64,000 bases of DNA from Vitis vinifera (Eukaryota > Streptophyta > Magnoliopsida > Vitales > Vitaceae), in assembly GCF_030704535.1 (NCBI RefSeq), contig NC_081810.1:7450501-7514500 (forward strand), read 5' to 3'. Positions 12,523-63,280 of this stretch are shown here, in pieces (position 1 is the stretch's first letter; the number at the start of each line of letters is the position of its first letter). The notes under the pieces were generated by a model. That model did no database searches, was not told the origin of the DNA, and saw only the letters and a list, made by a program, of their open reading frames with translations. A program made the translations under genes and the position numbers.

Positions 12523-12920
12523 TAAGTAGTAAAGAGGTGGGTTGTGATGAGTGGTAGTCATGTTTCAATATACGTAGTAAATAGTAAAGAGGTGGGTTGT
12601 GATGAGTGGTAGTCATGTTTCAATATAAATAGTAAGTGGTAAAGATGTGGATTGTGATGGGTGGTATTCATGTTTCAATATACATAGTAAGAAGCAAAGA
12701 GGTGGGTTGTGATGGGAGTCAAATTTCAATATATATACTAAGTAGGTAAAGAGGTGGGTTGTGATGGGTGGTACTCAATTTTCAATATATATAGTAAGTA
12801 GTAAAGAAGTGGATTGTGTTGGGAGTCGAATTTCAATATATATAGTTAATAGGTAAAAATGTGGGTTGTGATGGGTGGTAGTCAAATTTCAATTTACGCA
12901 GTAAGTGGGTAAAGAGGTTC
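12523..12920. repeat. Minisatellite, about seven units of 52-62 bp
   Basis: The core AAAGAGGTGGGTTGTGATG followed by GGTGGTAGTCATGTTTCAAT and ATATA.GTAGTAAG repeats about seven times with length and base changes. It is the same core as the inner subunit at 9.4-10.1 kb (GTGGGTTGCTATGGGTGG). The sequence 12921-13329 that follows has no recognisable gene. Confidence 0.8.
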
Positions 12921-48620: not shown

Positions 48621-50799
48621 ATGGCAGGGACAGAAGTTTCATCATACCCTCCTCTGTTTCGTGAAGAGAAAGGGTCAATCCATGGGGGGGTAGAGGGAGA
48701 AGAAGGGGTGAAGGTGGGGGGTGGTAGTTCAGAGTCAGACCCACTTCCAGTGATGGATCTTGAATGCATGGAGATGGAGAAGCTAGGAGAAGTGTGTAGA
48801 GAGTGGGGCATTTTTCGGCTGGTCAACCATGGGATTCCTTTATCTCTATTGAGCCAACTCGAGGACCATGCAAAAAGGCTGTTTGGGCTGCCTTTTGAAT
48901 CCAAGGAGGCCGTCTTCACCACTCCTGTGTCCTACTTTTGGGGCACCCCTGCGCTTACCAAATCCGGAGTGGCCCTTTCACAGACCCCCCAAAATGTCAA
49001 TTGGGTGGAAGGCTTCAATGTTCCTCTCTCTCAATTGCCCCTGCTTCAGACCCAGGATCCCATCATTGCTTCCTTCAGGTACATCCTCTCCTCCCTCTCA
49101 TTCCTTTTGGGTTTTTTTCTTTTCTTTTTTTTCCTTTTTGGGGTTTCTCATGTTCTTAGTAAGTATTAATGATTAAGATTATATATTTTTGGACTGAGTT
49201 TCCGGCTCTCCTCAAAAGACAAAAAGTGTGTTCCCGAGGACATGTCACTCAAAATATTTCTGATCATTTGCCATCAATTATTTCCTCTTGTACTTAAGAA
49301 TAGTGATTCTAAGATACCCACCACCACCCCATATTTGATGGTAAAACCCCAATCCAAGGAAACGGAATGGGTTTCTGCAAAAGGGGAAGGAATCCATTTC
49401 CCGGAGACGGAGAGAGAGTTTCCTCCCCTGTACCCATCTGCCCATGTCAACCTTTTTTTCAAAATTTAAAGAAATAAGATGAAAATAATGAAGATGATTT
49501 TCATTGGTTTCATTCAAATTACATCAAAAGTCTTAAGCAATCATTTTTAATATTCCATTACATTTAATCTAAGTTTTTCTACACATAAATTTTTTATAAT
49601 AATGTTTTTAAGCTAAAAAAAGATTAGATGAGATTATTGATTGCTTTCTAATTTAGATTGAGATCGATGCTCACCAACCGACCCCGACCCCAACCCCAAA
49701 TTGTAATTTTAATGGAATGAAATTAAATAATACAAGGTCACATCATCTAGTGCATTCCAATCGAATCTTACAAAAAAAAAAAAGTATTAAATTATATATA
49801 TATATATATATATGGCATTGAGAGTGTTTTATTAAATAGGAAGCATGGCCACATGACTTAAATATTTGTCTCCTATTGTGTCCGGATTGCTTTTGTCTCT
49901 TCCTCCAAGACAAAAAGTCCTTGCTAACTAAGAATCCTTCTTTTTGCAATGGCCACCATCACTTTCATTCATAATTCAATTACTTTTTCTTGGCCCCATT
50001 TACTTTTTCTTGGCCCCATTACAAAGGGGAAAAGGTTAAGCAAAGCTCAACGTTCATGTCTCTCTCATCATCAACACCATTTCCGTTCCCCTTTTAATTC
50101 TATGAAGAAAGTATGCTACTAAATCATATGCCTTTTTTGTTTCGTTTCATGGCCCACAAGACTTATCCTCGAGGAATATGGAAGGCATTTGTCTAGAATT
50201 GCGAGAACTCTCTTTGAGGCTATGGCTAAGAACTTGGGACATGATCCAAAGCAATATGAGTCTAGTCTAGACGAATCTTCCGGAATCGTTCGAGTTTATA
50301 GATACCCATTACGCCCTAATCGTGACCATGCAAGCCACATGGAGGTGCACACGGACAGTTCTGTGCTCTCAATTTTGAATCAGGATGAAGTCGGTGGCCT
50401 CGAAGTCTTGAAGGACGGTGAATGGCTAAGTGCAAGTCCAATTTCCAATACCTTGGTCATCAACGTTGGTGATATGATGCAGGTAAGACATATTTTAATT
50501 GAATTCAAAAGCTTAAATTATTAGATGATGAAATGTATTAATAAAAATTTGTCCTTTTGAATTAGGTTATAAGTAACGATAAGTACAAGAGCGTGATTCA
50601 CAGAGTGAAGGTGGCAAAAGAGAGGGAGCGGCTCTCGATATGTTACTTCGTGTTTCCAGAGGAAAACACCGTAATCAAAAGCTCTAAGTATAGACCATTT
50701 TCGTATAATGATTTTCGTAGCCAAGTGCAGGAAGACATAAAGACCTTAGGGCATAAGGTTGGGCTTAAACGGTTCAAGATTAATGATGATAGTGACTAA
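48621..50799 (+). CDS. 2-oxoglutarate/Fe(II) dioxygenase, gibberellin 2-oxidase-like
   Basis: Three exons, 48621-49078, 50161-50482 and 50566-50799, sum to 1014 nt, giving 337 aa. Exon 1 has the N-terminal DIOX_N region (LPVMDLECMEMEKLGEVCRE, GIFRLVNHGIP). Exons 2 and 3 carry the catalytic double-stranded helix. Iron ligands are His216, Asp218 (VHTDSS) and His272 (SVIHRV), and the 2-oxoglutarate site is Arg282-x-Ser284 (RLS). The end VQEDIKTLGHKVGLKRFK resembles gibberellin 2-oxidases of the C20 class, as does LNQDEVGGLEVLKDGEW. Those enzymes inactivate gibberellins in the cytosol. Substrate cannot be read from sequence, so the gibberellin role is inferred. I chose the ATG after the TATA box; the first intron is about 1.1 kb. 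Confidence 0.88.
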
Positions 50800-52020
50800 A
50801 AGTTTATTAGGTTCAAGGGAGCTTACCATATTTGATTTGTAACCGTAATGTTAAATAAACAAAGGGCCCATGACCCCAAATGGTCCCATGGTTCAATGAA
50901 TTAATAAAGCTCTTAACTATATTCTTAGCTCAAATGAGTCATTTTTATGTTATATAATTGTCCACTTGAAAAAGGATAAAAATAAAATAATGATGAGGAT
51001 AGTGGAAAATGGGCAGGGGGGCAAGGTCCTTGGTGTACCCAAACGGTGGGATAAGAATGGTACTGAGAATTCCGTAACTAGGAATTTTGTAAATACCAAG
51101 AGACTAGGGTACCCTAGGGCCTAGTCCTTATCCTCATTCCAACCATGCAAATGCACGTGGGGCCTTCCTCATCTGATTTATTCTTTGAAAAGCTGTTGCT
51201 ACCTACCCATTGTTTTATATATTTATTATTGGTATCACTTTTCCGGATTCTTGATAAATATACTGCAATTAAAAAAAAAAAATATTTAAAATACTATAGT
51301 TTGGAAAATAATTCCAATTCTACGGCACTTTTGAACATGTAGGATAACACGTAGGATAGATATGAAAACCCATTTCCCTTCCCGTTTTTCTTCTCTTCTC
51401 TTCTCGTTTTTCTTCTCTGCATCAAAACTCCTCTGCCCGAAAACCCACTATCCCACACGCTGATCATGAGTTGGAGATCCTTGCTTCAACACCAATAGGA
51501 AGGAAGTGAAGTACAGATCTGAGAAACCATTGCCCCCGGTGTTTTCTGTAAGTTTTGTGGTTATATTTGGTGGTGTGGTTGTGTTTGGTCACCGAGAAAG
51601 TGTGGGAAAGTTGTAAAAAAAATAAAGTTTTTGTTTTTTTTTACAATGAAACTGAGTAGACTAAAAATAATGGAGAAAGTTTTAATTTTTTTTGTGGTTT
51701 GGCTTGTTGTGATTTTGTTTGGTTGCCAAGAAAGTGTGGGAAAGTTGAAAAAAAAATTTTCCCAATATTTCCTACCAGTCCAGCCCGCGCACAGGGTATC
51801 TGTCCAATTTTTTTTTTATTAAAAAACATAAGCTATTTGGTAATCTGATCATGATTTGAGGAGAAAGGTGATCATGATTTGAGGGGAAAGGTTGTGTTTT
51901 TCAGCGTGGCTCAAAAATCGTGGATTTAGGGTTTGTGAAATTTCAATCCAATGGCACAAAAGCAAAGAGACCCCTGGACAGATCCAGAAAGCACGGAGCA
52001 AAAAAAAAACATTTTTTTGT
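50800..52020. other. Downstream region of the dioxygenase gene, with small duplications
   Basis: AATAAA-like signals occur at about 50851 and 50902. From 51350 the sequence has a short CTTCTCTTCTC tract, and a block around AGAAAGTGTGGGAAAGTTG repeats near 51594 and 51727. I see no gene. Confidence 0.45.
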
Positions 52021-52021
52021 T

Positions 52022-52360
52022 TGTTTTTTTAGGGGGTTTTGCATGGACTTTCCCGGAAAGCAAATGGGGGATGGATTTTCTTGGGAATCAAACGGGGATT
52101 GCACAAACTTGGGAATCAAACGGGGGTTGCAACAAAATAAAAAAATAATAACCTGATTAGATTAGTACCTACAATAATTGAAATTGAAAATTTGTTTTTT
52201 TAGGGGGTTTTCCATGGATTTTCCTGGAAAGCAAATGGGGGATGGATTTTCTTGGGAATCAAACGGGGATTGCACAAACTTGGGAATCAAACGGGGGTTG
52301 CAACAAAATAAAAAAATAATAACCTGATTAGATTAGTACCTACAATAATTGAAATTCAAA
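52022..52360. repeat. Two tandem units of about 172 bp
   Basis: TTTTTTTAGGGGGTTTT, then GGATTTTCTTGGGAATCAAA, GGGTTGCAACAAAATAAAAA and ACCTGATTAGATTAGTACCT occur twice, starting near 52022 and 52195, with only a few changes. Each unit also repeats TTGGGAATCAAACGGGG inside. Confidence 0.85.
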
Positions 52361-52374
52361 TTCAAATTTAAATT

Positions 52375-53245
52375 CAAGGAGACACTTTCAGTATAAACCA
52401 ATTTTTTAAAAATTATGAAAGGTGTCCGAATATAATTCCATTTTTTTGTAATTATGGAAGGTGTCTCTTGAAGAGACACCTTCAGCATAAATTCAAAATT
52501 TTCCACTGTTTGAATGGAAATTGTGGAAAGTGTATTTTGAACAAGCATTTTCAGTATAAACCCAATATTTTTAAAATTGTGGAAGGTATCAAGAGACACA
52601 TTTCACAATTCCCAAAAAATTGAATTATATTGAAGGTGTCTCTTCAAGAGACACCTTCTATTATTTTAAAAAAATTGGTTTATACTGAAAGTGTCTCTTG
52701 AAGAGACACTTTCCACAATTTTCATACATTAAAGAGAGACATCTTTAGCTTTAAAATCATTTCCACAAATAAAATACATATTGGATTTTGTGGAATTGTG
52801 TAAAGTGTCTTTCCAAGAGACACATTTAGTATAAATCTAATTTTTTGGAATTCTAGAAGGTGTCTCTTAAAGAGACACCTTTGGTATAAATTAAAATTTT
52901 TAGAAATTGTAGAAGGTGTCTCTTCAAGAGACATCTTTAGCTTTAAAATCAAATTTATAAGACATTCAAATTTTTGAGGAAAGTGTCTTTTCAAGAGACA
53001 CCTTTAATGAATATTGGATTTTTTGCCACGTGGAAAGTGTCTCTGCAAGAGACACCTTTAATACATATTGGATTTTTTGCCATGTGGAAAGTGTTTTTTC
53101 AAGAGACATCTTTAATATAAATCAAATTTTCTGAAATTGTAGAAGGTGTCTCTTGAAGAGACACCTTTAGCTTAAATTCAATTCTTTCATGATTTTGAAA
53201 ATTGTGGAAGGTGTCTCTTCAAAAGACACCTTCCACGTGGCCAAA
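52375..53245. repeat. Array of about eleven short palindromes (GTGTCTCTTNAAGAGACAC type)
   Basis: A palindrome of about 24 bp, consensus AAGGTGTCTCTTSAAGAGACACCTT, recurs at about 52460, 52636, 52688, 52803, 52856, 52912, 52980, 53034, 53090, 53144 and 53209, with decayed half-copies near 52378, 52535 and 52585. Spacing is mostly 52-65 bp, and larger at the left. Spacers are AT-rich and share strings such as TAGTATAAAT, TTTAGCTTTAAAAT and TTGGATTTTTTGCCA. Many changes keep both arms similar. No coding potential is seen. It is not CRISPR: units are palindromes in a plant chromosome with related, not unique, spacers. Confidence 0.9.
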
Positions 53246-53923
53246 ATTGCCGTAAATCTATCAATATTTTCAAAACTACCATTTTTTAATTATAATTTTT
53301 TAAAATTGCCGCAAAAGTTAAAAAAGCCCTCACTTTTCCTCATGTTTCGTGAAAACACGTGTTGTAGGCTTATAGCATCCATACCGTTTTCATCCTTTCT
53401 CTCTATTGTGTTCGTGACAGGACAAAAATAAATTTAAAATTTAAATTTTAAAATTTAAAATACAAGCTAATCCCCACCACTTAAGGTTCCCGACCAAAGT
53501 CATGAATCTAGTAATTTACATTTCCTTTATTATACATTTAATGCATATGGAAAGAATACGTGTATAAAGTGTGCAAAAAATGCATCGTGACTAAATTCAT
53601 GACCCTATTAAATTGTGTAGATGTACAATAACTAGAATCATGTTCCTACGTTAAAATTTTCGTGTACCATTAATACTATATAGAATTAAATGGGAAAAGT
53701 GGATTTACGTGGTTAGAAGGAAGTGTTTATTTGTGACTCTTAAGGGAAGGTGCTTGACATGAAAATGATGAGATTAAAATACAAATGAATACATCAAAGG
53801 TATAATAATATAAGGTCAAAGACAAAGTAATGGAACCTTACATATGATACAAATGAATAAAATATATGACTATATATATATATTTATATTGATATTTAAA
53901 TAATAAATAGAAAAATACTTAAA
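53246..53923. other. Spacer without genes
   Basis: 53480-53620 contains a diverged inverted copy of the 46340-46520/55055-55250 repeat (TACATTTCCTTTATTATACA, GCATATGGAAAG). Otherwise AT-rich DNA without coding signal. Confidence 0.4.
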
Positions 53924-53932
53924 AAAAAATTA

Positions 53933-54464
53933 GGGAGAATTATCTTTTGGGGGTAGATGGGCCCCCAAATTAACAAAAGGTCCATATAACTCTTCAAATT
54001 GAGTTGAAGGATATGAAATGGTAACGGACAAATATACCCTTTAAGAACACATATAAAATATTTTATAAAATTAAGTTAAATAATTTTTTTTTCAAAAATA
54101 CTAAATTAAATAAAAGTAGTTTTCAAAAATATTAAATTAAATAATTTTTTTTTCAAAAATATTAAATTAATTTATTTTTAAAAAATATTAAATTAAATTA
54201 AAGTATTTTAAAAAATATTAAATTACATAAAAGTATTTTTTAAAAATATTAAATTAAATAAAAAATATTAAATTAAATAAAAGTATTTTTCAAAAATATT
54301 AATTTTTTTCTCAAAATCAACAAAGGGCATTTTTGGAAATACTGAAAGATGATATCCTTCAACTCAATTTTCATATTTTCATTGGGTATTGGGCTCAATT
54401 TAAAGAGTTACATGAACCTTTTGTTAATTTGAGGGCCCATCTACCCCCAAAACATAATTCTCCC
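53933..54464. mobile_element. Mutator-like MITE, 532 bp, 9-bp target duplication
   Basis: Terminal inverted repeats begin GGGAGAATTATCTTTTGGGG on the left, and the right end read inverted begins GGGAGAATTATGTTTTGGGG. They match over at least 70 bases, including GTAGATGGGCC and TTAACAAAAGGT. Direct repeats AAAAAATTA (53924-53932 and 54465-54473) flank the element; 9 bp is the signature of Mutator-type transposition. The centre is AT-rich and made of AATATTAAATTAAATAAAAG-type repeats, with no transposase. Confidence 0.88.
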
Positions 54465-54473
54465 AAAAAATTA

Positions 54474-55357
54474 TGTATTTTTTAGTAAAAAAAAAAATGA
54501 AACATATTTAAAAATATTAAAAAATAAATTAAAAATAGTTTAGGTTATTTTAAAATCGTTTTTTAGAATATTTTTTAAAACACTTCTCAAATGGAACCTA
54601 ATTTGTTAGATTGGATACTGGGTCAATCCAAAAACATTCAACTCAATTTCAAACAAAACTATTCTTGAAATTGATATACTTGTGTTAAAAAATCAAGTAA
54701 ATAAGATCCCTCAATTTTAGTTTAATGGAACAAAATAGATTTGCAAAACTCACCTTGTGTCATGTGATAAAGATCACCTTTCTTGGATTGTCTATAATGT
54801 TGAGTCACTTGGTAGCACTTTATCTCCTTGTATTGGTATCGACACTTTGTATCTTCCTTCTCCTCTCTCTTGTTAAATGTTTGTATAAAGTGATGAGAAA
54901 CCTTATAAAACTTCGAATGAGTGGAGAGGGACAAAAAATTGTTTTATATCATGTTAACTAAACTTCTATCAATAGTTATAAATGAACACTTCCTTCCCGT
55001 TGCATGAATCCACCTTTTCCACTTAGTTCCATGTAGTATTGATGATATATGAGAAATTTAATCAATGTAGGCACATGACTTTAGGGCATTGTACCTTGTA
55101 TTTTCCATACACCTTATACACTTAATCTTCTCACATACATTCAATGTATGATGAAAGGACATGTAAATTCATTAGGTTCATGACTTTATTCATGAACCAT
55201 TAAGATATGGGGATTAACTTCATGTGGTCATGAAGGCCACAATAATTCTAATAACTTAATCTAAATCAAATCCAGTTTCATTCTTTTTAAAATTTAGGTG
55301 CTTTGTACTCATTGAATTGATCAAATTGTAGATCGAGAAAGAAACTAAATTAGAAAT
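54474..55357. other. Spacer without a convincing gene
   Basis: 54722-54961 is open in both directions for 70-78 codons but shows no recognisable protein. 55055-55250 is the repeat shared with 46340-46520. No promoter or splice support is seen. Confidence 0.4.
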
Positions 55358-55360
55358 TAA

Positions 55361-55569
55361 GGTGACGTTTAATTTTTAGTTGAATAGAAAAAGTCAAAAT
55401 ATTTTGTTTTTTTTTATTTAGTTAAAAGTAACATTTTAATATTAACTAACATAATTAAAATGAACTCAACTTTAGTTATATTGGTTAATATTAACAAGTT
55501 ATTTTTAATTAAATAGAAAAAGACGAATATTTTGGCTTTTTCTATTTAACCAAAAAAATAAACATCACC
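55361..55569. mobile_element. Small Tourist-like MITE, 209 bp, TAA target duplication
   Basis: The left end GGTGACGTTTAATTTTTAGT matches the inverted right end GGTGATGTTTATTTTTTTGG, followed in both by TTRAATAGAAAAAG and CAAAATATT. TAA lies on both sides (55358-55360 and 55570-55572). Trinucleotide TAA/TTA duplications are typical of PIF/Harbinger-derived MITEs. No coding capacity. Confidence 0.75.
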
Positions 55570-55572
55570 TAA

Positions 55573-58002
55573 ATTATAAATTATTAATTACCTCACTTTA
55601 AATTTTGGGGACAAAGTATAAAATCTTTAAATTATTTTATATTTTTTATAACTAAGTTATTGATTATGATAAATGTTGTCCATTTTATAGATATATGTAT
55701 ATATGTTGGTAATTATCTAGATTTTTATTTTTTAACTAATTACTACAAATAAATTTTTTGAATCAAAATTTATTAAAGTAACTTTAGATATATACAATAA
55801 CAAATAACAATAATTGAATTTTGGGAGAGGTTACACTTCAAAAGAAAGTAATTAATAATTATGAAAATTTGAATTTATTATTTAAGATAACAAATACTTG
55901 TGTGAATTGTTTTATTTTTAAAAGTCTTATACTTGTATAGGTAATCTTCTTGGGACTTGCAAGAGGCCAAAAATAAATGAAGGAAAAAAATAAATGATGG
56001 TGAAGCTTAATACACAACTTTTCATAAACCAGCATCAATGTGAATTCTTCCATCTTAATTAAAGTTATTCACAATATTATTATTAATTTCCTCTTAACTT
56101 TTCAAATTAATCCATATTCTCCTAAAGTACACTTTAGAATGCACATGATCCAAATCCCTTTCACTACCTTCACACTTAATTCATCAACTCTGAATTCATT
56201 TCAAAGTACATATTATAAATCATTAAATTTTGATTGTAGTTTCTAAGTAAAAATATATGTTGTAAGATTAATTAGTTATTGCAAAATAATAAGAAAACAT
56301 AATGCTAAATTGAAATAATGAGTGAAATTTTATCACTTAAACACTCAAGTCATGTTTGATTAGTCGGATATAACATAAGATAAGACAAAAGAATAAATAT
56401 TATATTATTTCTCATATTTGGTTTATGATAGGATAAGATAAGTTATCTCATCACTTATCTTATTTTATATTCAACCAAATACGAGATAAGATAAGTAATG
56501 AGATATATCATCCTTTTTTTTTTTTTTTTTATCATTTTTATATGAGATGTGTTAATCTCGTACTAAGGAGATATATTAATCTCACGAGGAGATATGCTAA
56601 TCTCCTGCTAAGAAGATATGAGATACGAATATCCCATGTATCATAAATTTCTATTTTATCAATTTTTAATAATATTAATATATGATATATAAATTATTTT
56701 TATATATTAAATAACATGATATAAAAAAAATTTATTGTAAAATTTAAATATTTTAATCATGAATATTATTAATTCTAAGAGAGATTTCATTTTTCCTAAA
56801 TAGAAAATATTGGAATGTAATATAATTTTTATTTTAAACATTGAAAATAAGATATAATATAGTATTTTCACCTTAAAATATAAGGTGATATATATATATT
56901 CAAAAATAAAAAATGAATATAATATAATATAGTATAATATATCTTATTTGATATATCACCTCATGTTTATAAGATATGCATATTCAAAATATCATATTCT
57001 AATAAAAATCATATTTTAGGGTATGTGTTTTGTATCTAATGGATATGATATCTTAAAATATACACATCATATCATATCCTATCCCACCAACTAAACTTAA
57101 CTTCAATAAGTGAAATTATTATTATTATTTATTTGGATGAATATACAAAAAATTCTTTTACCATACATAAATTTGTTATGAATATGTATATCACATGAGT
57201 TATTTGATTCGGTAATTGGATTAAAAGAAATAAAATAAACACAAAATCAAATAAAAGATAACCCACCATGACTTTCTAGAAAATTTCAATATTTTATTAT
57301 AAACTTTTTAAAATTTTTTGAAATAGCTAAATATAACTATGACAATTTTTACCGTTTTTTTCAATTGGGCTATTGTTAATTTTGAAAGAAAAAACCAACA
57401 AAAGAAAAAACAATGGATAATAATAATTAAAAAGAAAAAGACAACAGATAGTAAAACATATAAGAAATTTAGAATTAAATTAAAAGAGAAAATATATTAA
57501 TAGAAAAAAAAATAAAGAAAATAAGCAAGTCTAACTAGTATACAATAGAACACTGTTAAGGAAAATTAACAAATCTTGAAAAGAAAAATGTAAAATATTT
57601 TTTGGCTACAATTTAGGATACTAATACAATAAAATAAAACAATTTTCAAGGTTAAAGGAGGGAAAAAAAAAGGAGGAAAAAAACAGGAAAACAAAATATC
57701 AATAAAACAAAACAAAATACATCTTATGGGAGAGATCCTATAAAAAAATGAAAAAGAAATAAAATAAAACAAAATACCAATAAAACAAAACAAAATACAT
57801 GTGATGGGAAATATCCTATAAAAAATGGAAAATAAAACAAAATACCAATAAAACAAAACAAATGAAAAATATAAGTGTAGTTTCCTTTTACAAAAGATGG
57901 AAAAGACACAATAGCCATACTAATAATTAAGTTTGAAGGAGAGAATATAGATGATTGTCATGGTCAAATGGAGGAAACTGAAGAGTCATTGTGAATGAAA
58001 AT
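55573..58002. other. AT-rich spacer with a possible MITE and a tandem repeat
   Basis: 56350-57100 may be a larger decayed MITE: GTTTGATTAGTCGGATATAA at one end and, inverted at the other, TAAGTTTAGTTGGTGGGATA. It is filled with GATAAGATAAG and GATATGATAT strings. 57703-57856 has two tandem copies of about 77 bp (AATAAAACAAAACAAAATAC, then ATCCTATAAAAAA). No gene is seen. Confidence 0.45.
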
Positions 58003-60979: not shown

Positions 60980-63280
60980 GGGCTTTCCTTGATCTTCATG
61001 GTAGATATTTTGAGCAGTGGGTTTTGTTGGTAGGCTCCCAAGGCATTGAGTTGTGGGCCTAAGTTGGTTCATGTAGGCCTTAAGCCCACTCTTTGAGTTT
61101 AGGCCTGATTAGTTTATATTGGGCTTCACTACAAGCTACTTGGCATGTTGTTTTTTTTTATTAGATTGCTCTAAGCCATTGTCCGTTTAGTGTAAACCCC
61201 AATGGGCCAAGCACTTGGCCCTCTCAAGTCTTCATATTTTTTTTAATGATACAAATGTAATTTTTTTTTATTAAAAATCTCATCCTCAAATAACCTTTCA
61301 AAATTCACTTTCTATTCATATATTCCAAATTTCAAATCCTTTTCCGAAATTCCAATTTTTAAAGTTTAGTTTACCAAACTTTAATTCTCGAAAATTCAAT
61401 TTTCCAAAACTCCATTTTTAAATTTAATTATACAAAATACCATTTTTGAAATAATTTCCTAAAATTTGATTTTAAATTTAGTTTATAAAACTTTGATTCC
61501 CCAAAATTCAATTTACCTAAACTTTGTTTTTTTTAAAATTCAATTTTCCAAGTTCCCATTCTTGAAATAATTTTCTAAGGTTCTAATTTTAGGTCTAATT
61601 CTTCAAGATTCAAATTTTTAAATTTAATTCTCCAACAAAATTCCATAGTTCCGAATTTAATCCTTTTAAAATGTCACCTTCAAATAAATTTCCGAAACTC
61701 CATTTCCTTTCAAATCAAATCTTCAAAAATTTCATTCTCAAATAAATCTTCAAAAATCCCTTTTCTTATACTTAATCTTCAAATTTCCACTTCCAAATAA
61801 TTTTTCAAATTTTCGATTTCCGAATTTAATTTCCAATTTCCACAATTCCAACTTTTCACACTTATTTATTATTTAATCATTATTATTTTCGTTATTTTTA
61901 TCATTATTCCATTCATTTATTTATTTATTTCCTTTAAAAATTCCAATCATTAAAGTTCAATTTTTCAAAATTCCATATTCCAAATTCAATTTTCAATCTA
62001 AAAAATTCCACTATTAACTTCATTCGTTTAAATATTATTTTCGTTATTATTATTATTATTATTCCATTTATTTATTTATTTATTTCTTTTAAAAATTTCA
62101 ATCATTAAAGTTCAATTTTTCAAATTTCCGTTTTCCAAATTTAATTTCCAATCTCAAAATTCCACTATTCACATTCATTTGTTTAATGATTATTTTCATT
62201 ATTATTATTATCACATTCATTTATTTATTCACTTATTTATATATTTAAAATCTCATCTCTAAATAATTTTTCAAATTTTCAATATCTAACTTCAATCTCC
62301 AATCGCTAAAATTCTATTTTTCGCAATTATTTACCTAATCTTTATTATTCTCCTTATTATTATTATTCCATTCATTTATTTATTCGCTCATTCATTTATC
62401 TAAAATTCCATCTCTAAATAATCCTTCGAATTTCCAATCTCTAAATTCAATTTCCAATTTCTAAAATTCTACTTTTCATAATTATTTATCCAATTTTTAT
62501 TATTTTCGTTATTCCATTCATTTACTTATTTACTTATTCATTTATTTAAAATTCCCTCTCTAAATAATTCTTCAAATTTCCAATCTCTAAATTCAATTTC
62601 CAATTTCCAAAATTCTCATCTTCGTAATTATTTATCCAATCATTATTATTTTTGTTATTCTATTCATCCACTTGTTCATTTATCTAAAATTTCATCCCTA
62701 AATAATTCTTTAAATTTCCAATCCCTAAGTTCAATTTCCAATTTCCAAAATCCTAACTTTCACAATTATTTATCCAATCATTATTATTTCGTCATTATTA
62801 TTATTCCATTTATTTATTATTCACTTATTCATTTAAAATTCCGTCTTTAAATAATTCTTCAAAATTCCGATTTCCAAATTTAGTTCTGTGAAATTTCAAT
62901 TTTCCAATTTCCGAACTTAACTTCTAGCATTTTATTCATTTATTTCTAAAAATTTTGTTTTCGAATGATTTCCAAGTTTTCCAATTTTTATAATTCAATT
63001 TTCATAGTTTTTACTTCTCAAATAATTTTCAATTATGATTTCTTTCAAAATTTAGTTTCCAAAGTCCCAATTTTCGTAATTTAATTTTTTAAAAATCTCA
63101 AACTCTTAAATAATTTTCATTTAAAAGTCTCAATTTCTTTCAAATTTAATTTCTAAAATTCTCATTCTTACATTTAATTTCTAAGACTCCAATTTTCAAA
63201 TAATCTCTAAAAATCCAATTTTCAAATAATTTCTAAGACTCCAATTTTCAAATAAATTTCAAAAATTCAGTTTTCCCTTG
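60980..63280. repeat. AT-rich degenerate tandem repeats (AATTTCCAATCTCTAAATTC type)
   Basis: From about 61280 the sequence is made of short TTCCAAATT / AATTCAATTTTCC motifs. From 61860 to 62870 it forms about seven units of 120-170 bp: TTATTTATCCAATCATTATT, a TTATTATTCCATTCATTTAT part, TTTAAAATTCCATCTCTAAA, then TAATTCTTCAAATTTCCAAT. Units are strongly diverged. It probably belongs to the long LTR or flank of the gypsy-like remnant that follows. No coding signal. Confidence 0.7.

What the first reader, a model, noticed from the sequence alone, without database searches (positions are those of the whole stretch)
52375..53245. Array of about eleven regularly spaced palindromes
A 24-bp palindrome (GGTGTCTCTT-AAGAGACACC core) recurs at 52-65-bp intervals over 870 bp. 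The axis base varies (G/C/A) and substitutions tend to keep the arms related. Each copy can form a hairpin or cruciform, and a transcript would be a chain of stem-loops. Spacing near one third of a nucleosome, and the contrast of conserved palindromes with looser spacers, suggest that the palindrome is the replicated or selected part. I know no named plant element with this layout.
Basis: seen in the sequence. Interest (0 to 1): 0.8.

Follow-up and report, generated by a model that had tools for sequence, protein, structure and literature searches.

The report
Palindrome array inside grape jumping gene
The row of palindromes is the tail of a jumping gene (a Mutator-like transposon) repeated many times in what looks like the grapevine genome; its best-formed palindromes flip their middle letter again and again, and they look like docking sites for a protein that full-length copies encode, though docking itself is untested.

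Summary
The array is real: 12 recognisable 27-bp palindromes plus four fragments at window 52375-53234. It is not free-standing. It is the right part of a 2,085-bp Mutator-like element (51245-53329) with a 10-bp target duplication. At least 40 array loci exist in this genome (grape-like by size; inferred). Longer relatives (two measured at about 9.9 and 11 kb) carry the same ends and array and encode a MURA transposase plus a plant-mobile-domain (PMD) protein.

Two things are unexpected. First, the axis base flips C<->G: 31 inferred changes in 12 axis columns, against 6 in 312 arm and 7 in 454 spacer columns, mainly in symmetric palindromes. A second family agrees on a small sample. This is the signature of local palindrome inversion by template switching. 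Second, a relative with 69% identical transposase carries arrays of a different palindrome, altered symmetrically in both arms, with unrelated spacers.

My reading: arrayed dyad binding sites for an element-encoded protein, working like the VANC motif arrays of Arabidopsis VANDALs but palindromic and paired with PMD. Binding is inferred; template switching alone might also keep the arms symmetric.

The parts
51245..53329 (+). Non-autonomous Mutator-like element (2,085 bp) that contains the array; internal-deletion derivative of longer coding elements
   Evidence: 14 of 30 fetched loci (window included) share both the left and the right part, mostly at 93-98% identity, L031 at 87%; L038/L040 carry the same left and right parts round a coding interior
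51235..51244 (+). Left target-site duplication TCACTTTTCC
   Evidence: Sequence: 10-bp duplications in 12 of 14 copies with both ends fetched
53330..53339 (+). Right target-site duplication TCACTTTTCC
51245..51279 (+). Left terminus GGATTCTTGATAAATATACTGCAATT..., weak inverted repeat with the right terminus
   Evidence: alignment score 32, shuffles 17.3 +- 3.4, 0 of 500 reach it
53295..53329 (-). Right terminus (read inwards GGGCTTTTTTAACTTTTGCGGCAATT...)
51245..52372 (+). Left non-coding part of the element, without palindromes
52020..52360 (+). 171-bp tandem duplication, 2 copies at 97% match, in the left part
52375..53234 (.). Palindrome array: 12 recognisable 27-bp units plus 4 fragments
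52457..52483 (.). Palindrome 1, axis 52470 (G); perfect; 10 inferred complement flips
52526..52552 (.). Palindrome 2, axis 52539; asymmetric; 0 flips
52632..52658 (.). Palindrome 3, axis 52645 (C); perfect; 7 flips
52687..52713 (.). Palindrome 4, axis 52700; most symmetric on average; only 2 flips
52801..52827 (.). Palindrome 5, axis 52814; asymmetric; 0 flips
52856..52882 (.). Palindrome 6, axis 52869 (A); near perfect; A>T 2 and C>G 3 changes
52912..52938 (.). Palindrome 7, axis 52925; inner arms symmetric; 0 flips
52979..53005 (.). Palindrome 8, axis 52992; 0 flips
53033..53059 (.). Palindrome 9, axis 53046; 1 flip
53087..53113 (.). Palindrome 10, axis 53100; asymmetric; 0 flips
53142..53168 (.). 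Palindrome 11, axis 53155 (G); near perfect; 8 flips
53207..53233 (.). Palindrome 12, axis 53220; 0 flips
52582..52604 (.). Deleted unit (GGAAGGTATCAAGAGACACATTTC region); other half units near 52375-52389, 52417-52427 and 52731-52747
   Evidence: read by eye

Best explanation
The array is the right (3') subterminal region of a Mutator-like transposon family. Full-length members (two measured, about 9.9 and 11 kb) encode a MURA transposase and, downstream on the same strand, a PMD protein whose downstream frames are repetitive and Arg/Gly-rich; the array lies between the PMD gene and the right end. The window copy lost the coding middle but kept both ends and the array. Each palindrome is, most likely, a twofold-symmetric recognition site whose two half-sites (AAGAGAC plus a family-specific triplet, ACC here, GAG in the sister family, then TTC) are bound by a dimer of an element-encoded protein, MURA or the PMD protein. 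Many sites close together would give that protein a family-specific address, for transposition and/or to keep the element free of silencing. The array grows and shrinks by tandem duplication, visible as extra 67- and 99-bp steps. Separately, because symmetric units can fold back, replication template switching inverts the palindrome centre and flips the axis base. Shown: element identity, target duplications, coding relatives, array size variation, axis flips, symmetric motif difference between families. Inferred: protein binding, which protein, anti-silencing role. My odds: element identity 0.97; flips are local inversion 0.85; dyad protein-binding array 0.5; PMD rather than MURA as partner about even.
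For: Element: 10-bp target duplications in 12 of 14 copies with both ends fetched, 9 bp in one, none in one; of four long copies probed for the left end two reached it and both show matching 10-bp duplications. Coding: Pfam MULE 1.4e-18, DBD_Tnp_Mut, SWIM in an uninterrupted 854-aa ORF; PMD 3e-58; 2 uninterrupted 854-aa copies of the family's transposase; PMD within 15 kb of 32 of 36 larger transposase pieces. At least 33 of 40 left ends have an array downstream, at spans of 1.9-12.3 kb, 15 of them under 2.3 kb. Between units of the window array conservation ends sharply at +-13 bp. Sister family: palindrome differs in both arms at the same three positions, spacers unrelated; core CGTCTCTTNAAGAGACG at 1,604 places, reversed control 0. 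The centre TTNAA, which would be an RNA loop, is the same in both families, as expected for DNA contacts. Unit number 11-18 per element. Flips. Precedents: VANC motif arrays (PMC5735166, passages); speculation that MULE-captured PMD serves anti-silencing (PMC5418596, passages).
Against: No binding, expression, methylation or small-RNA data. Between copies, arms diverge as fast as spacers, so no selection is visible on inserted copies. Template switching also makes inverted-repeat arms alike (PMC8604942), so symmetry alone does not prove selection. In the second array of the sister family and in L055 the arm/spacer contrast is weak (spacers 0.74-0.83 and up to 0.70). Three other PMD-carrying relatives (transposase 59, 62 and 71% identical over the matched part) show no array in the 3.3-3.5 kb examined downstream of PMD (L060-L062), so PMD and array do not always go together. 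Seven of 40 left ends had no listed array, and pairing used truncated lists. Some listed core palindromes stand alone rather than in clusters and were not examined.
Confidence: 0.5

Rival explanations
1. Selfish baggage: the array is a minisatellite inside the transposon. Tandem duplication multiplies it and template switching between arms both flips the axis and makes the arms symmetric, with no bound protein.
For: Arms and spacers diverge equally between copies. Flips show that template switching or hairpin inversion does act on these units. Arm homogenisation by the same process is published (PMC8604942, passages).
Against: In the five units with two or more complement flips, arm changes have hardly ever spread to the other arm: 1 complementary of 2 both-arm cells against 94 single-arm cells. 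Palindromes of two families share symmetry and the inner seven positions while spacers are unrelated. At least 33 of 40 left ends still have an array, including short derivatives, though this could be chance of where deletions fall.
Confidence: 0.28
2. The array binds a host factor or acts as promoter, enhancer or 3' end for the neighbouring PMD gene rather than as a target of the element's own protein.
For: In the window-type family the array lies downstream of PMD; in the sister family arrays lie on both sides of an inverted PMD gene.
Against: The motif differs between families in the same genome, which a fixed host factor would not favour.
Confidence: 0.12
3. RNA-level role: transcripts through the array form a chain of stem-loops that feed or escape small-RNA pathways.
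For: A perfect unit folds as single-stranded DNA to -11.5 kcal/mol.
Against: Arm changes are strand-symmetric (C>T 56, G>A 58), with no sign of G-U tolerance on one strand; two asymmetric units tested barely fold (-0.6 and -1.8 kcal/mol); the would-be loop is unchanged between families; no Rfam match.
Confidence: 0.07
4. One reading: micro-MITE whose unit is the palindrome, or an ordinary satellite.
For: Core palindrome dispersed at 242 places, some of those listed standing alone; the sister family's arrays reach about 7-8 kb.
Against: Many of the listed sites lie in clusters with the element's internal spacings (175, 225, 286 bp); target duplications flank the whole element.
Confidence: 0.03

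Closest known systems
VANDAL elements with VANC anti-silencing proteins, Arabidopsis (PMC5735166, PMC10398659; passages seen)
   Same: Transposons with degenerate terminal repeats, short motifs multiplied in tandem repeats of non-coding regions, motif differing between related families, accessory protein with tandem peptide repeats in a variable region
   Different: VANC21 motif YAGTATTAY is arrayed in one orientation, and 'palindrom' does not occur in either paper's main text; accessory gene here is PMD; anti-silencing not shown here
PMD-carrying MULEs (PMC5418596, passages seen)
   Same: MULE transposase together with a plant mobile domain; authors speculate on anti-silencing
   Different: Passages describe PMD-transposase fusions in grasses and Amborella. 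Here the PMD frame starts about 91 bp after the transposase frame on the same strand, so a spliced fusion is not excluded, but in the sister family it is on the opposite strand; and a palindrome array is adjacent
Mutavine families of grapevine (PMC2528002, section 8 read in full, other passages)
   Same: Grape MULEs of about 9-11 kb, some without recognisable terminal repeats (Mutavine-6, -14, -17)
Subterminal repeats bound by TNPA in En/Spm (recalled, no call)
   Same: Short motif repeated many times near the element end and bound by an element protein
   Different: Different superfamily; motif not a 27-bp palindrome array
Inverted-repeat spacer inversion by template switching in yeast (PMC8604942, passages seen)
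   Same: Spacer inverts, mostly when arms are already perfect; reversible
   Different: Here a one-base spacer, in many copies of a plant transposon

Membership tests
Mutator-like elements (MULE) | MURA-type transposase in coding members | tested here: met
   Pfam MULE 1.4e-18, DBD_Tnp_Mut 1.6e-10, SWIM 1.1e-8 in L035:4981-7542:-; the window copy itself is non-coding
Mutator-like elements (MULE) | Target-site duplication of about 8-11 bp (range recalled; 9 nt reported for grape MULEs in PMC2528002) | tested here: met
   10 bp in 12 of 14 copies and in both long copies whose left end was reached, of four probed
Mutator-like elements (MULE) | Terminal inverted repeats (absent or degenerate in non-TIR MULEs) | tested here: inconclusive
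   Only a degenerate repeat of about 35 bp, above all 500 shuffles
VANDAL/VANC system | Encodes a VANC protein | tested here: inconclusive
   Pfam scan of 7 reading-frame pieces from 2 long copies gave transposase and PMD domains and one sub-threshold HROB match; no VANC sequence was compared directly
VANDAL/VANC system | Family-specific short motif multiplied in tandem in non-coding DNA | tested here: met
VANDAL/VANC system | Protein binds the motif and removes DNA methylation in trans | not testable with these tools
   No binding or methylation data
PMD-carrying MULE | Plant mobile domain encoded within the element | tested here: met
   PF10536 3e-58 (L039) and 6.8e-47 (L035); PMD match within 15 kb of 32 of 36 larger transposase pieces, 22 on the same strand, 10 opposite
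Micro-MITE (palindrome as mobile unit) | Target duplications round single palindromes | tested here: not met
   Duplications flank the 2.1-11-kb element; stand-alone palindromes were not examined
Satellite DNA | Long homogeneous arrays independent of a transposon | tested here: not met
   11-18 units inside element copies in the window family; the sister family's 7-8-kb arrays were located but only about 1 kb of one was fetched
Inverted-repeat spacer inversion by template switching | Spacer replaced by its complement, arms unchanged, preference for perfect arms | tested here: met

The most novel reading that the evidence does not exclude
A second sequence-specific anti-silencing system in plants, separate from VANC: a transposon-encoded PMD protein binds family-specific palindrome arrays as a dimer and protects its own family from silencing, motif and protein changing together between families. 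The same arrays would serve as a natural recorder of palindrome inversion, each axis base being a reversible switch read across dozens of copies.
Probability: 0.2. Interest if true: 0.85.

Novelty: new variant of a known kind. Interest (0 to 1): 0.6.

Why it matters
PMD proteins MAIN and MAIL1 silence transposons in Arabidopsis, and authors have guessed that transposon-borne PMDs counter silencing, but no cis target is proposed in the passages I saw. These arrays offer one that can be tested directly by binding assay, with two motif types in one genome as each other's control. Independently, the axis flips give a countable record of palindrome inversion in a plant nuclear genome: about 31 C<->G events in one family, seen again on a small sample in a second, linked to arm symmetry.

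Tried and rejected
Rfam search of 51200-53400: no match at gathering score. Micro-MITE and satellite readings: disfavoured by element ends and target duplications. Selection on inserted copies: tested and not seen (arms 0.036, spacers 0.034). A/T positions in arms vary about half as much as in spacers (0.012 against 0.023), but spacers are full of A/T runs, so I gave this no weight. Compensatory arm changes between copies: rare. Unit-to-unit conversion as the source of axis flips: disfavoured, because in 20 nearest-neighbour pairs 24 flips had 0-2 arm and 0-3 flank differences, and in 16 of 24 no other aligned unit offered a full-arm donor with the opposite base (my count of its rows; pairs share copies, and only the 12 aligned units were checked, not the extra 5' units of long copies). 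'PMD present means array present': not upheld. RNA hairpin role: disfavoured. Literature: I saw no palindrome array in a MULE, and no cis target for a MULE-borne PMD, in the listings of searches or the passages opened; this covers only open-licence PubMed Central, and most listed papers were not opened. Naming the Mutavine family: no sequence to compare. No structure prediction was run, because the PMD domain is split over two frames.

Full report
Observation. The window holds 12 recognisable 27-bp palindromes (arms GAAGGTGTCTCTT / AAGAGACACCTTC round one axis base) between 52457 and 53233, with four half or deleted units filling wider gaps from 52375. None with 8 or fewer mismatches occurs elsewhere in the window. 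The 21-bp core occurs exactly at 242 places in the window's genome, 0 for the reversed control (only the first 50 or so places are listed, many in clusters, some alone). The genome (495.6 Mb, 21 contigs) fits the grapevine T2T assembly in size (494.87 Mb, PMC10199708, passages); the species is an inference.

What it is. Searching the genome with 52360-53260 gave 277 matches from 40 scored candidates of 304, a lower bound; the 40 strongest rows are at 81-100% identity. Comparison of 30 fetched loci (L005, the window's own copy, included) with window 50001-56000 put common ends at 51245 and 53329; 14 share both parts and 16 only 52373-53329 within the flank fetched. Both ends abut a 10-bp direct repeat in 12 of the 14; one has 9 bp, one none. 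The termini form only a weak inverted repeat (score 32; shuffles 17.3 +- 3.4; 0 of 500). Five of the 16 were fetched at 10 kb; all five contain transposase matches. Four were probed for their left end; two fetches reached it and both show the matching 10-bp duplication, giving elements of about 9.9 and 11.0 kb by my arithmetic on the coordinates.

Coding content. L035 has an uninterrupted 854-aa MURA frame (MULE 1.4e-18, DBD_Tnp_Mut, SWIM) and, downstream, PMD-domain frames split by an apparent intron; L039 gives PMD at 3e-58. Frames further downstream contain a 29-aa repeat and an Arg/Gly-rich end; that they belong to the PMD protein is inferred. The array lies between this and the right end. 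Genome-wide, the transposase has 62 match pieces, including two uninterrupted 854-aa copies in this family and relatives at 55-85% identity. PMD has 136 match pieces. Of 36 larger transposase pieces, 32 have a PMD match within 15 kb, 22 on the same strand (often 91 bp after the transposase match) and 10 on the opposite strand, all 10 among relatives of 65-73% identity. The window copy is thus a deletion derivative that kept 1.1 kb of the left end, the array and the right end. Of 40 left-end matches, 33 pair with a listed array within 15 kb at spans of 1.9-12.3 kb, 15 under 2.3 kb and 7 of 3.2-7.8 kb. Seven do not; one of these (C3:5205153) has a core palindrome 1.6 kb downstream, and for the rest the truncated lists decide nothing. 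Seven of the 40 arrays also lacked a listed left end, one of which was found.

Array dynamics. Element copies hold 11-18 units; L017 shows 21 because a second, inverted array lies beside it. Extra units in long copies come in steps of 66-67 and 99 bp at the array's 5' side.

Conservation. Between units of the window array, arms are 0.72-0.94 identical within 13 bp of the axis and spacers 0.35-0.53 (composition alone 0.30); the axis itself is 0.41. The long copy L037 agrees (arms 0.78-0.96, spacers 0.35-0.57). The contrast is weaker elsewhere: L054 array 1 arms 0.83-1.00, beyond 15 bp 0.50-0.75; array 2 arms 0.75-1.00, beyond 15 bp 0.74-0.83; L055 arms 0.60-0.84, beyond 0.41-0.70. Units were picked for likeness to the palindrome, which favours the inner positions. 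Between 30 copies, arms (pi 0.036) and spacers (0.034) differ equally, most arm changes being C>T and G>A. Inserted copies therefore decay without visible constraint on the palindrome; constraint or homogenisation, if any, acted in the lineages that moved.

Axis flips. In 30 aligned copies (window plus L006-L034; L005 is the window itself, and L001-L004 are overlapping cuts of one locus), C<->G differences make up 29 of 319 C/G cells at axis columns, 3 of 3,567 in arms and 1 of 3,202 in spacers. With 40 copies (L044-L053 added) and a tree from non-palindrome columns, parsimony gives 31 C<->G changes in 12 axis columns, 6 in 312 arm, 7 in 454 spacer, 2 in 78 left and 7 in 95 terminal columns (of which 11, 123, 109, 19 and 27 are G/C columns; columns with fewer than 25 letters dropped). 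The complement changes by unit are 10 at 52470, 8 at 53155, 7 at 52645, 5 at 52869 (two of them A>T), 2 at 52700, 1 at 53046 and 0 in the other six. Their number falls with arm mismatches (Spearman -0.72, p = 0.008, n = 12), with exceptions: 52700, the most symmetric, has only 2, and 52925, symmetric near the axis, has none. The Fisher odds ratio of about 50 treats cells as independent, so its p-value overstates. Flipped nearest neighbours are nearly identical around the axis and often lack a donor unit. In the sister family three copies of one array differ C/G at 3 of 7 axis columns and at 1 of 1,044 other columns; in one of the three the arms differ too. A perfect unit folds at -11.5 kcal/mol, two asymmetric ones at -0.6 and -1.8. 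Spacer inversion by template switching is published for yeast, in 9 of 10 cases in already perfect inverted repeats (PMC8604942, passages). I take the axis flips as the same process.

Sister family. Downstream of a transposase 69% identical to ours (C9:1847661), L054 has two arrays, 10 and 8 units as scanned, of GGGAACTCGTCTCTT-S-AAGAGACGAGTTCCC, 87-256 bp apart, in unrelated A/T-rich spacers; shuffled controls average 0.45 palindromes against 16 found. Counting outwards from the axis, positions 1-7 match ours, 8-10 differ (ACC here, GAG there) in both arms, and 11-13 match. The core CGTCTCTTNAAGAGACG occurs at 1,604 places, and matches run almost continuously over 7-8 kb at two loci. Its arms vary less than spacers between three copies: 5 of 227 against 49 of 817 columns. 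Its PMD gene is inverted relative to the transposase, and a frame after the PMD frames has GGVRTRG repeats and an Arg/Gly-rich tail. A 78% relative carries our motif in a degenerate array of 24 units (L055). A 65% relative (L056) has three related palindromes and a 64% relative (L057) none; neither has a listed PMD within 15 kb. Against a simple rule, three other PMD-carrying relatives (L060-L062) show no array in the 3.3-3.5 kb fetched.

How it probably works. Symmetric difference in both arms with a fixed centre, an indifferent axis base, a sharp footprint in the window family, family-specific outer positions and multiplication in tandem fit a twofold-symmetric protein site. The nearest worked example is VANC in VANDAL elements, where tandemly multiplied family-specific motifs recruit an element-encoded anti-silencing protein with tandem peptide repeats (PMC5735166, passages). 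PMD is a reasonable candidate here because host PMD proteins act in transposon silencing and transposon-borne PMDs have been suggested to oppose it (PMC8616336 and PMC5418596, passages). MURA itself is the other candidate. The main alternative is that template switching alone keeps the arms symmetric; in the five units with two or more flips only 1 complementary both-arm cell stands against 94 single-arm cells, which speaks against it on recent time scales, not on old ones.

Limits. 

Noticed in passing
L054:6542-7631 and G000:C9:1856181-1863603, C13:7407125-7415350: In the sister family, matches to the palindrome array run almost continuously over 7-8 kb, which looks unusually large for an arrayed motif of a DNA transposon; 1,604 exact cores genome-wide.
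   Followed up: partly
L037:502-2033 and similar repeats in L035, L036, L038, L039: Long coding copies carry a minisatellite of about 444 bp period upstream of the transposase (for L037; repeated matches for the others).
   Followed up: no
L037:6611-7042; L054:2352-2689; L060:569-711; L061:2506-2651: The region after the PMD frames holds tandem repeats (87, 177/21, 21 and 21 bp periods) in different families, kept even in two relatives without palindrome arrays.
   Followed up: partly
G000 transposase relatives of 65-73% identity: The PMD gene is on the opposite strand from the transposase in 10 of the 36 pieces compared, and about 3-4 kb away, whereas in the window family it follows on the same strand.
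   Followed up: partly
L017:1668-3327: Two copies of the palindrome array in opposite orientation lie side by side at this locus.
   Followed up: no
window 50120-50800: Reading by eye, exons resembling a 2-oxoglutarate-dependent dioxygenase end about 0.45 kb upstream of the element (no database search made).
   Followed up: no
window 61781-62880 and 12523-12918: Other tandem arrays in the window, about 155-bp and 55/107-bp periods, holding none of these palindromes by the scan.
   Followed up: no
places listed (contig C1): The exact CG-type palindromes in the rows shown had only C or G at the axis, as if flips are frequent but A or T rarely persists.
   Followed up: no
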